NCBI GenBank assembly: GCA_025174535.1
Contig: JALBUN010000006.1
Span: 62,001 to 126,000, forward strand
Length of the DNA: 64,000 bases
Direction: 5' to 3'
Origin: Cantharellus purpuraceus
Lineage: Eukaryota > Basidiomycota > Agaricomycetes > Cantharellales > Hydnaceae
The translations under genes and the position numbers were made by a program. The notes under the pieces are model-generated. The model searched no databases, was not told the DNA's origin, and saw nothing but the letters and a program-made list of their open reading frames with translations. Positions 54,305-60,278 of the stretch are shown piece by piece. Positions within the stretch are counted from its first letter, which is position 1. Each line of letters begins with the position of its first letter.

Positions 54305-54820
54305 AATGTCAAATCCTTTGGCAAACATAAGTGTGGCCGAGCTCGAGCAGTTGCTCCTGGCCTGATGGAAGGAAGAGGAAGAGGAGTGGAGATGGAAGGA
54401 GGAGCAGGAGTAGCAGAGATGGAAGGAGGAGCAGCAGCAGCGAGATGGAAGGAGGAGGAGGAGGAGTGGAGATGGGAGGAGGAGCAGGAGCAGAGATGGA
54501 AGGAGGAGGCAGAGATGGAAGGAGGAGGCAGAGATGGAAGGAGGAGGTGGAGACAGAACAGAGAAGGAAGGAGGAAGAAGCGAAAGCTGAGCGAGCCTGC
54601 AGGGTCAGGGAGCTTGTGGCTGTGATGGAGGCTGCAAGACTGAAGGAAGTGGAAGAGCAGGCACACGAGCTAGAAGCCGCCATGGAGGTAGAGGAGGTGA
54701 CTGGGGCAGGGGTGCCAGTCACTCGGGGAGTCTGAGTGTGCCAATATGGGCGGGGACCCCCGAGGTTGCCATTGTCTCAATTATGCGGACGGATTCAGCC
54801 CATCTGACAACTGTCCCTAC
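54305..54820 (+). pseudogene. coiled-coil, Glu/Arg-rich coding remnant X (first half)
   Basis: After a TATA-like ACATATAAAAGG at about 54,268, the ATG at 54305 opens MSNPLANISVAELEQLLLA. A TGA follows, then a long run of KEEEEEW-type residues in repeats of a GGAGGA-rich sequence, ending in a helical stretch (ELVAVMEAARLKEVEEQ). The composition is typical of the coil-rich ORFs associated with agaric retroelements, but I cannot name the family. It is cut at 54820 by an LTR A. The sequence continues on the minus strand from 57322, across the inverted segment. Confidence 0.5.
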
Positions 54821-56181
54821 TGTATGGGAACCACCTTTTTCCTATCAAATTCCATTTATGCAGCACTTATTCAAATATTCTCTATTTTTCCATATTTTTC
54901 CGGGAATATTCCATGCAGAACTCGGCCCAGAATCATTTATTTCTGCTGTGCTACAGTTGGGGACCCATAGGTGCCCACAAACCTTTGCACAGCTGGCTAT
55001 CCACCTTTGGACCAGGCATTCAGCCTGAATTCAAGCTCAGATGTCTCTGATCAATAAATATTCTCTAACTTGATAACCACAGCCTCTCAGGGCACTATTT
55101 TCCGTGCAGATCATCACATGAGATGTGGCTATCCATGGCTGTCCAAACCAGTGCAGAAAACAGGGTGGACACCCTTCTTTTTGCCTGATCAGTGCCTAGC
55201 TCAGGGATCAAATCAGCTGATGGGTGATCAAATCAGGTGATTGCCTTGGAATATTCTACCCCTTTCCATAACATTCTAGCTGTTTCCCTCTATTATTAGA
55301 TAGAACTTTCCAGAACCATTATTCAGCTCCTGATCAGTGTTAGTGCTGTGATCAGATCCTGTGATTGGCTTGGAATATTCTACCCCTTTCTTCCACCTTC
55401 CCCAACCTTCCAGTAGTTTCCATCTATTAATAGTAGAATATTCCAGAAGCATTAGTCAGCCCCTGTAAATACAATATATAAGGAGGCCATTCTGCCTCTG
55501 AAATAGAACATATCCATCATATCCTACCCATCTTCTGCACACCAGTGTGACTAGAGTGACATACAGTGTCATCCTCTATCTCAGTAACTGTTGATTACCA
55601 GTTCAAGGATCTTTTACAGTTGTGTAACTGTACTTGATTGCACTCGAAGTAGTGATATTCCTGCTTTGGGCATGAGTGTAGCATCTGCCTCATGTGACTA
55701 CGAATCTACAGGGTGAGATTGTCTGTTGATAGTCCTGCCATTAGTGCTCTTGTTTAAGTTACTAGTGTGTACTGCCTTTGCAGAGCATTAGAAGCTTGAA
55801 CTTGTGTGAAGCAGTTGCTAGACTACTTCACACATTGCTGTTACCTGCTTCTGAGTGCCACTGGTTGGACGGTTGGATTCATCCACCTACTTCCTTTAGC
55901 CTCTAAGTGCATTCCCCTCTTTTTGGAATATCTGGACCCCTAAGCGTCCGTGAACTCTAGACTCTAGATGTCTTATTCATTTCTTGCTGCTAAGAAATGT
56001 ATTACTTTTCTGCGTATAGTCTGCATTGACCAATACAAAGGATTGTAACCAAAGTACAAATGTTAAATTGTTTCTGGAGTTGTGCTGCAGCAGAGTTTGA
56101 TATTCTTCTCAGCTGTTCATTCATGGAATTGTGGTGATTTAGAGTTTGCCCTAACACCATAATTTTGCGGGTTCCAAAACA
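54821..56181 (-). mobile_element. LTR, family A (left partner of inversion 2)
   Basis: This 1,361-bp copy begins TGTATGGGAACC and ends GGTTCCAAAACA. The flanks are cctac (54816-54820) and gagat (56182-56186), which do not match each other but match the flanks of the inverted copy at 57323-59321 in exchanged fashion. It lacks about 60 bp near the left end compared with the 40525 copy. Confidence 0.9.
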
Positions 56182-56345
56182 GAGATGGCTTGTGCCAGAT
56201 TTGGGGAGGGCAGGGTGTCATCCTCTTCATTGATGGCCTCTATGTGGTCTGTCAGTTCTTTGATGACCTCAGGGATGGTGTCGATGCTGGGAGCGGGCAC
56301 CTCAATGGTTTGTGCACGTTTGGAATTGGTGGTGGATTGTGGCAT
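56182..56345 (-). pseudogene. N-terminal part of gypsy gag (element B/D)
   Basis: The ATG at 56345 opens MPQSTTNSKRAQTIEVPAP, followed by an acidic helix (IPEVIKELTDHIEAINEED), and ends LAQAIS at the LTR boundary. The next codons are found on the plus strand from 59322 (SLLASSIHNPQAPKSW), in the same frame when one copy of the 5-bp duplication is dropped. It starts 32 bp after the end of an LTR D, as a gag should. Confidence 0.8.
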
Positions 56346-57322: not shown

Positions 57323-59321
57323 TGTTTTGGAACCCACAAAATTATGGTGTTAGGGCAAACTCTAAATCACCACAATTCCATGAATGAACAGCTGAGAAGA
57401 ATATCAAACTCTGCTGCAGCACAACTCCAGAAACAATTTAACATTTGTACTTTGGTTACAATCCTTTGTATTGGTCAATGCAGACTATACGCAGAAAAGT
57501 AATACATTTCTTAGCAGCAAGAAATGAATAAGACATCTAGAGTCTAGAGTTCACGGACGCTTAGGGGTCCAGATATTCCAAAAAGAGGGGAATGCACTTA
57601 GAGGCTAAAGGAAGTAGGTGGATGAATCCAACCGTCCAACCAGTGGCACTCAGAAGCGGGTAACAGCGATGTGTGAAGTAGTCTAGCAACTGCTTCACAC
57701 AAGTTCAAGCTTCTAATGCTCTGCAAAGGCAGTACACACTAGTAACTTAAACAAGAGCACTAATGGCAGGACTATCAACAGACAATCTCACCCTGTAGAT
57801 TCGTAGTCACATGAGGCAGATGCTACACTCATGCCCAAAGCAGGAATATCACTACTTCGAGTGCAATCAAGTACAGTTACACAACTGTAAAAGATCCTTG
57901 AACTGGTAATCAACAGTTACTGAGATAGAGGATGACACTGTATGTCACTCTAGTCACACTGGTGTGCAGAAGATGGGTAGGATATGATGGATATGTTCTA
58001 TTTCAGAGACGCTTATTCAGAAATACAACAAATACGTATGTACAACCTATTTTCCTCAAATTTTATACAATACACTTCAATTCAAACTTATTTTCATATT
58101 TCAACATGATTCTCAAATTTTACACAATATACTAGATTAAAACATATTGTGATATTTTGGCATAATTCTCAAAAATAATTCTTTTTTTCCTGATTTAGTG
58201 GTGGCAACTCTCTTGAGGGAACATCCAAATATCATTGATTCTTTCTTATACAATACTTGTAACATAATTTGAACTATCTTTAATCCCCACCTGGTATTTG
58301 TATATCTAAATACCCTATATAATACCAATTATATTCATATATACATTCCTATTATATCCATGTAAATGATTATGTTCATCTCAACCAAATGTCTTATCTT
58401 TAAAAGTTTATTAAAATATAGAATATATGTTTATATTTATGAAAATTTCACACATCCGAAATCTTTTAAGATATCCAAATTGTAACTCCCTGGCTTTATG
58501 TATCATTGAAATTCTGATGTATATCTCATATACATCAGAATATTGTATACTGACATGATTCCGAACAAGCGTCAGAGGCAGAATGGCCTCCTTATATATT
58601 GTATTTACAGGGGCTGACTAATGCTTCTGGAATATTCTACTATTAATAGATGGAAACTACTGGAAGGTTGGGGAAGGTGGAAGAAAGGGGTAGAATATTC
58701 CAAGCCAATCACAGGATCTGATCACAGCACTAACACTGATCAGGAGCTGAATAATGGTTCTGGAAAGTTCTATCTAATAATAGAGGGAAACAGCTAGAAT
58801 GTTATGGAAAGGGGTAGAATATTCCAAGGCAATCACCTGATTTGATCACCCATCAGCTGATTTGATCCCTGAGCTAGGCACTGATCAGGCAAAAAGAAGG
58901 GTGTCCACCCTGTTTTCTGCACTGGTTTGGACAGCCATGGATAGCCACATCTCATGTGATGATCTGCACGGAAAATAGTGCCCTGAGAGGCTGTGGTTAT
59001 CAAGTTAGAGAATATTTATTGATCAGAGACATCTGAGCTTGAATTCAGGCTGAATGCCTGGTCCAAAGGTGGATAGCCAGCTGTGCAAAGGTTTGTGGGC
59101 ACCTATGGGTCCCCAACTGTAGCACAGCAGAAATAAATGATTCTGGGCCGAGTTCTGCATGGAATATTCCCGGAAAAATATGGAAAAATAGAGAATATTT
59201 GAATAAGTCCATTCCAGGTACAAGCATCAAATATATGCTGATATTTAGGAATGGAAAAGCAAAGAATAGCACATTGGTGCTGCATAAATGGAATTTGATA
59301 GGGAAAAGGTGGTTCCCAACA
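57323..59321 (+). mobile_element. LTR, family A (right partner of inversion 2), with a nested MITE
   Basis: It begins TGTTTTGGAACCC and ends GGTTCCCAACA. After removing the 564-bp MITE and its 5-bp duplication, the length is about 1.43 kb. It shares private variants with the copy at 54821-56181 (for example GGATATGATGGATATGTTC before the MITE site) that are absent from the 36281/40525 pair. The flanks are gtagg and atctc. Confidence 0.9.
58009..58572 (-). mobile_element. non-autonomous TIR element (MITE), copy 2
   Basis: This 564-bp element is in inverse orientation to the copy at 32450. The ends are ACGCTTATTCAGAAAT and the inverted ACGCTTGTTCGGAAT. The flanking direct repeat is cagag (58004-58008 and 58573-58577), and the uninterrupted site is visible in other LTR-A copies as TTTCAGAGGCAG, which proves the insertion and the 5-bp duplication. 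Confidence 0.93.
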
Positions 59322-60278
59322 ATCTCCCTGCTTGCCAGCAGCATCCATAACCCACAAGCCCCTAAGTCCTGGACCTTGGTCCAGGAACCTGACCCATTTG
59401 ATGGCTCTGATCTGTGAAAGCTCCAGCCATTCTTGGTGCAATGCCGGCTGAATTTCCACGACCACCCCAACACATTCACATCCGATCAGGTGAAGGTCAC
59501 CTTCGCCATGTCCTATCTCAAGGGCACCACACTGGACTACTTTGAGCCAGTGCTCATGGACAACACTGATGATCTGATATGGTCAGAAGACTACTCCAAC
59601 TTCATCTCCAAACTTCAGACCAATTTTGGACCTTACAACCCCGAGGCCGATGCTGAGAATGAACTCAATCAACTTCGGATGAAGGAAAATCACAAAATCA
59701 CAAAATACATTGTGAGTTTCCAGCAGCTAGCCCTGAAAGTCCAATGGGGAGATGCCACACTCCAACATCAATTTTACGTTGGTCTCCCATCCCGCATCAA
59801 GGACAAGATATCACGCGTCGGTAAGCTGGATACTTTGGTAAACCTTCACAAGCTCGCCCAATCCATCGATCCCTGTTATTGGGAACGTCAATCCAAGGTC
59901 TCCCATGAAAATTCAGCTAACAACAAATCAGACAAATCATTGGACAAGATCCCAAAGTCCAACAAGGGGTCTGATAAGAAGACTACCACCAACTCAGGCC
60001 AGAAGTCAAACATGGGTAACGCCCCTTCCAGTTCCAGTCAGAACAACTCCAGAACCGGCAATAGCTCTGGAGCTCGCAAGAGCACTCTGGACCTCTCCAC
60101 CAAGCTGAGAAAAGATGGAAAACTTACCCAGCAGGAATGCCAGCATCGCATGGACAACAACCTTTGTCTGTTCTGTGGAAAACCTGGCCACCAAGCCAAG
60201 GATTGCAACAAGGCAACCTTGTCTGCAGCAAAGGCAAAGGGCCATGCCACCAATGCCATGATGGACCAAAAAAAATAG
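59322..60278 (+). pseudogene. chromovirus gag, C-terminal part
   Basis: The capsid region includes DPFDGSD, CRLNFHDHPNTF, KVTFAMSYLKGTTLDYFEP and FVGL-type helices. A Ser/Lys/Asn-rich linker follows, then the CCHC zinc knuckle CLFCGKPGHQAKDC near the end; the stop is at 60276-60278. A TGA at 59415-59417 replaces the Arg codon expected in the conserved DPRKLRPF-type motif. The N-terminus is found at 56182-56345 on the other strand, owing to inversion 2. Gag forms the capsid of this fungal Ty3/gypsy (Metaviridae-type) element. Confidence 0.85.

What the first reader, a model, noticed from the sequence alone, without database searches (positions are those of the whole stretch)
54816..59326. Inversion 2: a second, independent LTR-LTR inversion that splits a chromovirus gag
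The LTR A copies at 54821-56181 (-) and 57323-59321 (+) have flanks cctac/gagat and gtagg/atctc. These are again swapped complements. The gag N-terminus (56182-56345, minus strand, right after LTR D) and the rest of gag-pol (from 59322, plus strand) join in frame when the 1,141-bp segment is flipped back, and the coil-rich remnant X at 54820/57322 also becomes continuous. Two events of one kind within 18 kb suggest that this LTR family repeatedly drives local inversion.
Basis: seen in the sequence. Interest (0 to 1): 0.87.

Follow-up and report, generated by a model that had tools for sequence, protein, structure and literature searches.

The report
Small inversion between two retrotransposon LTRs
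A 1.1-kb piece of a fungal-looking genome appears to have been turned around by recombination between two facing copies of a retrotransposon end (solo LTR), splitting another retrotransposon's gag gene; the mechanism is known, and the same mark turns up at several other inverted copy pairs in this genome.

Summary
Left LTR A (54821-56181, -) and right LTR A (57323-59321, +) carry exchanged 5-bp flanks: in LTR sense ATCTC/GTAGG and GTAGG/ATCTC. In other genomic copies the two gag pieces are contiguous on one strand over a single ATCTC (11 of 11 counted relatives), and the halves of repeat X are contiguous (12 of 14; 2 could not be placed). The gag-LTR junction has one match at 0-2 mismatches genome-wide. 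So two solo LTRs in opposite orientation recombined and inverted 56182-57322 here, the known signature of transposon-mediated ectopic recombination (Galileo, PMC2775673). Of the 7, inversion 1 is fully swapped; C1:647.9-653.8 kb probably is; one is an inverted duplication instead; one lacks the second half; three were not completed. Three inverted pairs are unswapped. A real event of a known kind.

The parts
54816..54820 (+). CCTAC, outer flank of the left LTR A; half of the 5-bp duplication of the X target site
   Evidence: X halves contiguous in 12 of 14 relatives
54821..56181 (-). left solo LTR A, about 70 bp missing near its 3' end
56182..57322 (.). inverted 1,141-bp segment
   Evidence: exchanged flanks; both joins contiguous in relatives
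56182..56345 (-). N-terminal piece of a chromovirus gag, now opposite in strand to the rest; GAGAT at 56182-56186
   Evidence: adjacent to the 59322 piece in 11 of 11 counted relatives
56378..56740 (-). 5' LTR of that chromovirus (ends read by eye)
56741..57322 (-). right half of repeat X (coil-rich), with GTAGG at 57318-57322
57323..59321 (+). right solo LTR A, 1,999 bp including an insert
58008..58573 (.). 566-bp insert with terminal inverted repeats (GACGCTT...AAGCGTC) and AGA duplication, inside the right LTR A
59322..60278 (+). rest of gag (starts ATCTC; Retrotrans_gag, CCHC knuckle in 59418-60278)
60771..63885 (+). pol pieces: reverse transcriptase, integrase zinc domain, SH3 and chromodomain, interrupted by stops
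36281..41929 (.). inversion 1: LTR A (+) 36281-37685 and LTR A (-) 40525-41929 with AATGG/GTGGC exchanged
   Evidence: arms differ at 2 of 665 and 0 of 618

Best explanation
Two LTR A elements inserted independently and are now solo LTRs: one in repeat X (duplicating CCTAC), one in the gag of a chromovirus that had itself inserted into X (duplicating ATCTC). They lay in opposite orientation. A homologous crossover between them turned the DNA between them around, exchanging the outer and inner duplications and splitting gag. The same pairing also copied sequence between the arms (gene conversion), which explains why they are nearly identical. Shown: exchanged flanks, both ancestral joins in relatives, a junction unique at 0-2 mismatches, arm identity. 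Inferred: the crossover itself, gene conversion, and the order of events. The same process probably acts at some other close inverted LTR A pairs.
For: Exchanged 5-bp flanks. gag pieces contiguous over one ATCTC in 11 of 11 counted relatives; X halves contiguous in 12 of 14, 2 not placed. gag-LTR junction found once at 0-2 mismatches. Arms are each other's nearest copy among those held: 3/686 and 0/637 differences against 13/686 and 14/637 to the next. Opposite-strand LTR ends within 20 kb share flanks in 7 of 76 comparisons, permutation mean 0.23, maximum 4 in 5,000. At C1 the second half of the swap (ACTAC) was predicted and then found at 651,579 (+).
Against: The uninterrupted relatives are paralogous repeats (gag pieces about 83-92% alike, X pieces lower), not the same locus in another strain. 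No reads were available to exclude misassembly. At other half-swapped loci the predicted second flank was not found by exact motif for C3, C6 and C7, and did not match at C9:1055696/1065141. One of the 7 shared flanks is an inverted duplication instead. Three 3' ends read at inverted pairs showed no swap (one intact, two mismatched). Some mismatched LTRs may be 5' LTRs of full-length elements (flank TTCAT in 7 of 100 listed ends), so a mismatch alone is weak.
Confidence: 0.92

Rival explanations
1. Assembly artefact: the true order is uninverted and the assembler flipped the segment at the inverted repeats.
For: Arms are nearly identical over about 1.3 kb, the classic trap; no reads could be examined.
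Against: Arms of 1.4-2.0 kb are short for long reads, and contigs of 3.5-4.0 Mb among 50 suggest a long-read assembly (inference). Three close inverted pairs are assembled with intact duplications.
Confidence: 0.06
2. One event made both the second LTR copy and the inversion (replicative or template-switch copying of a single solo LTR into a nearby inverted site), which would explain identical arms without gene conversion.
For: Arms are each other's nearest held copies. At C9:1360.9-1365.0 kb one LTR insertion appears as an inverted duplication, 883 bp identical. The unswapped C9 pair also has near-identical arms.
Against: Both sites here show their own 5-bp duplication, the mark of two integrations. 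The outermost ends differ more than the rest: an indel of about 70 bp, a 1-bp indel and a substitution near the 3' end against 3 differences in 1,323 bp, as expected if conversion stopped short of the ends. Solo LTRs are not known to transpose replicatively (recalled).
Confidence: 0.08
3. One old inversion inside a chromovirus, copied to this place by transposition.
For: None found.
Against: The gag-LTR A junction has one match at 0-2 mismatches. The X flank, not part of the chromovirus, is also swapped.
Confidence: 0.01
4. Self-integration of one LTR A element into its own cDNA, giving inverted LTRs with a shared 5-mer.
For: It would give the same 5-mer (ATCTC) beside the left LTR's 5' end and the right LTR's 3' end, and identical LTRs.
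Against: It needs the other two flanks to be LTR A's own internal boundaries; instead they are halves of X, contiguous in 12 of 14 relatives, and share GTAGG.
Confidence: 0.01

Closest known systems
Galileo-generated inversions of Drosophila buzzatii (PMC2775673; abstract and passages seen)
   Same: Two transposon copies in opposite orientation at the breakpoints, exchanged target-site duplications, a single target copy in uninverted DNA; interpreted as ectopic recombination.
   Different: Galileo is a DNA transposon with 7-bp duplications and the inversions are polymorphic chromosomal ones; here they are solo LTRs, 5-bp duplications and inversions of a few kb inside nested repeats. Chimerism of the copies was shown there and cannot be shown here because the arms are too alike.
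Recurrent human inversions mediated by inverted repeats (PMC3961182; passages seen)
   Same: Inverted repeats that recombine, with recurrence reported.
   Different: Human inversions genotyped in populations; here one assembly.
Y- and X-chromosome palindromes homogenised by gene conversion (PMC3723533, PMC8981503; search listing and start of abstract only)
   Same: Inverted arms kept almost identical by gene conversion.
   Different: Large palindromes; here 1.4-kb solo LTRs.
HERV-K recombination inferred from mismatched target-site duplications (Hughes and Coffin; recalled, not read)
   Same: Uses disagreement of LTR flanks to infer rearrangement.
   Different: Proviruses in primates; different family.

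Membership tests
Inversion by ectopic recombination between transposable elements | two homologous copies in opposite orientation at the two breakpoints | tested here: met
Inversion by ectopic recombination between transposable elements | target-site duplications exchanged between the two copies | tested here: met
   ATCTC/GTAGG and GTAGG/ATCTC
Inversion by ectopic recombination between transposable elements | single copy of each target and contiguous flanks in uninverted DNA | tested here: met
   in paralogous repeats (11 of 11 gag; 12 of 14 X), not in an allele of this locus
Inversion by ectopic recombination between transposable elements | both copies chimeric | tested here: inconclusive
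   arms too alike to assign halves
Solo LTR of an LTR retrotransposon | TG...CA ends and 5-bp duplications at intact copies | tested here: met
   duplication matches in 9 of 20 complete copies and 8 of 22 readable copies; the rest mismatch
Solo LTR of an LTR retrotransposon | full-length elements with the same LTR and a shared internal start | tested here: inconclusive
   3' flank TTCAT in 7 of 100 listed 3' ends; internal region not studied
Chromovirus (split element) | gag, reverse transcriptase, integrase and chromodomain | tested here: met
   Retrotrans_gag, RVT_1, Integrase_H2C2 and Chromo above their cut-offs; the integrase core (rve) below its cut-off

The most novel reading that the evidence does not exclude
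Close inverted solo LTR A pairs in this genome act as recurrent flip points: arms kept alike by gene conversion, the DNA between them turning back and forth, so that swapped and unswapped pairs coexist as in an equilibrium and orientations differ between strains or nuclei.
Probability: 0.25. Interest if true: 0.6.

Novelty: new member of a known kind. Interest (0 to 1): 0.42.

Why it matters
Exchanged 5-bp flanks give a simple test for past LTR-LTR inversions in one assembly, without a reference. In this genome the test finds an excess at close inverted pairs, so solo LTRs, usually read as the dead end of an element, look like a continuing source of small inversions and of sequence exchange.

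Tried and rejected
A third marker (the duplication of the chromovirus at its 3' LTR) could not be used: pol is cut at about 63834 by another element, no LTR of this family was matched between there and 73377, and the LTR from 73377 aligns continuously with a second copy of X and its LTR, so it was taken as that copy's. C9:1362423/1364916 first looked like another inversion; it is an inverted duplication of one insertion, the same 5-mer lying beside both copies, each copy truncated. C3:1516944/1638497 shares GACTC over 121 kb, but the second copy has GACTC on both sides, so coincidence is likely. C5:577845/600978 gave no readable ends. Of the 32 windows of 291 bp fetched for predicted ends sought 3' ends and 3 held one (one intact, two mismatched, none swapped with its partner), and 2 sought 5' ends and 1 held it; many copies are truncated or nested and the exact 5' motif first used is one variant of several. 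In the count of relatives, copies whose alignment did not come within 6 bases of the site were not counted. Literature: the listings showed no paper on exchanged duplications at solo LTR inversions in fungi; one search listed 10 of 3,076, only open-licence PMC papers were searched, and PMC12368964 (inversions by tandem transposon insertions) was seen in a listing only. The organism was not identified.
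Full report
WHAT IS THERE. The window is C6:62001-126000 of an unnamed 40.15-Mb genome in 50 contigs. I read it as fungal from its chromovirus and composition; this was not tested. Two copies of one LTR family (LTR A) lie in opposite orientation at 54821-56181 (-) and 57323-59321 (+). In LTR sense the left copy has 5' flank ATCTC and 3' flank GTAGG; the right copy has 5' GTAGG and 3' ATCTC. The right copy is longer because of a 566-bp insert with terminal inverted repeats and a 3-bp duplication. The left copy lacks about 70 bp near its 3' end.

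IS IT AN INVERSION. If two solo LTRs with their own duplications (X-LTR-X and Y-LTR-Y) in opposite orientation cross over, the result is X-LTR-Y and Y-LTR-X with the segment between them turned around. That is the observed pattern. I tested the ancestral order in other genomic copies without flipping anything. The gag piece at 56182-56345 and the piece from 59322 lie side by side on one strand, sharing one ATCTC, in 11 of 11 counted relatives. The two halves of repeat X (ending at 54820, and starting at 57322 on the other strand) are contiguous in 12 of 14 counted relatives; in the remaining two (L036, L054) the right half could not be placed. Rows of the window's own locus, and copies whose alignment did not come within 6 bases of the site, were left out of both counts. 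The gag frame is kept across the join by codon counting; the remaining gag then meets a stop just before 59418. A genome-wide search for the gag-LTR junction at up to 3 mismatches gave this locus with 0 mismatches and one other LTR end (C20) with 3 mismatches and a different flank. So this looks like a local event, not one spread by transposition.

THE SPLIT ELEMENT. Pfam finds Retrotrans_gag and a CCHC knuckle in 59418-60278, RVT_1 in 61281-61592, an integrase zinc domain in 62674-63087, and an SH3-type domain and a chromodomain in 63148-63885; the integrase core (rve) was below its cut-off. Several stops and a further insertion near 63834 interrupt pol.

THE ARMS. Among the held copies (54 rows for the 5' half, 25 for the 3' half, some of them the same place fetched twice), the two arms of inversion 2 differ at 3 of 686 and 0 of 637 bases; the next-nearest copies differ at 13 of 686 and 14 of 637. 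The arms of inversion 1 differ at 2 of 665 and 0 of 618, the next at 14 of 663 and 16 of 618. Other LTR A copies within a few kb in the same window are not so alike: 31543(-) and 36281(+) differ by 4.01%, 28898(+) and 36281(+) by 3.05%. The outermost 3' ends of inversion 2 differ more than the rest (an indel of about 70 bp, a 1-bp indel and a substitution). The simplest reading is gene conversion between arms that stopped short of the ends. A comparison pair at C9 (138551(-) and 141902(+), both duplications intact) has arms 99.79% identical over 1,433 aligned positions. Arm exchange therefore may also occur at a pair that is not, or no longer, flipped; the same fact would fit a twin origin of such pairs.

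DOES THE FAMILY DO THIS REPEATEDLY. The genome holds 1,420 matches to the 5' end at up to 3 mismatches. I listed 227 exact 5' ends of one motif variant with flanks and 200 of 595 exact 3' ends, from contigs C1-C10. A further 22 of 42 fetched 5' ends were readable; these were chosen as partners of inverted 3'-3' pairs within 10 kb without knowing their 5' flanks. In one search, with 197 of the 200 listed 3' ends, opposite-strand ends within 20 kb shared flanks in 7 of 72 comparisons. One search repeats this with all 200 and with three 3' ends read: 7 of 76, against 92 of 47,004 for ends on other contigs; shuffling the 3' flanks gives a mean of 0.23 and a maximum of 4 in 5,000. Same-strand ends within 20 kb, own copies left out, gave 3 of 61 (2.8, 4.2 and 16.9 kb apart); these may be single copies lengthened by insertions, which was not checked. 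At 20-100 kb it was 2 of 125 (opposite) and 0 of 134 (same).

The seven are: inversion 1; C1:647907/653761 (GATAC); C3:1771822/1776308 (GCTTC); C6:379543/385707 (ACCCC); C7:343351/345375 (AATAT); C9:1055696/1065141 (CCTTC); and C9:1362423/1364916 (GCTAC), which is an inverted duplication of one insertion. The second half of the swap is confirmed for inversion 1. For C1 it was predicted (ACTAC) and found at 651,579 (+). The copy there spans 2.18 kb and so must hold an insert of about 0.75 kb; its first half was seen to continue into the LTR but the rest could not be read, so that it is one copy is likely, not proven. The predicted partners for C3, C6 and C7 were not among the exact-motif ends listed for those contigs, and at C9:1055696/1065141 the second half does not match (CCCGC against GATGT). 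Inversion 2 itself is not in this count because its 3' ends are not exact matches. Unswapped inverted pairs with both duplications intact are C5:402621/412568, C5:764864/766981 and C9:138551/141902. Three more 3' ends at inverted pairs (C34, C48, C49) were read and none was swapped with its partner.

WHAT IT IS LIKE. The pattern is that of Galileo in Drosophila buzzatii: opposite orientation, exchanged duplications, ectopic recombination (PMC2775673, passages seen). Recurrence at inverted repeats is reported in humans (PMC3961182, passages seen), and arm homogenisation in sex-chromosome palindromes (search listing). A review states that recombination between inverted transposable elements gives inversions (PMC5857280, passages seen). 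So the kind is known. What is added is a genome-wide excess of exchanged flanks at close inverted solo LTR pairs, and near-identical arms.

VERDICT. New member of a known kind.

Noticed in passing
G000 C9:1360900-1365000 (L075): One LTR A insertion (GCTAC beside both copies) present as an inverted duplication, 883 bp identical, each copy truncated at a different end.
   Followed up: partly
G000 C6:564624-577127 and C1:3710882-3729199: Pairs of inverted LTR A copies with the same flanks in the same sense (CCACC and GTTTG; ACTCC and TAGGT), as in large inverted duplications or palindromes of about 12 and 18 kb. Identical 5' flanks at inverted copies also occur at C11:679934/685611 and C23:88216/96180.
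   Followed up: no
58008-58573; also 32449-32996 and C6 just right of the window: Short element with terminal inverted repeats GACGCTTGTTC and 3-bp duplications (AGA, ATA, TAA), several copies.
   Followed up: partly
53659-54820 and 56741-57322; L024-L030: High-copy repeat X encodes a coil-rich, low-complexity stretch and lies antisense next to an LTR related to the chromovirus LTR; in L030 it lies near an opposite-strand gag.
   Followed up: no
L036 (G000 C1 about 1592027): Another LTR A copy inserted in X only about 17 bp beyond the site used in the window.
   Followed up: no
30229-30424: About ten tandem 20-bp units inside an LTR A copy.
   Followed up: no
G000 C1:2027741-2028066: Four LTR A 3' ends spaced 97 bp apart, a tandem repeat of the LTR end with its flank.
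   Followed up: no
LTR A position 14 (56168 and 57336): The same G/A site differs between the two arms in both inversions and is polymorphic across the held copies; looks like a CpG transition site.
   Followed up: no
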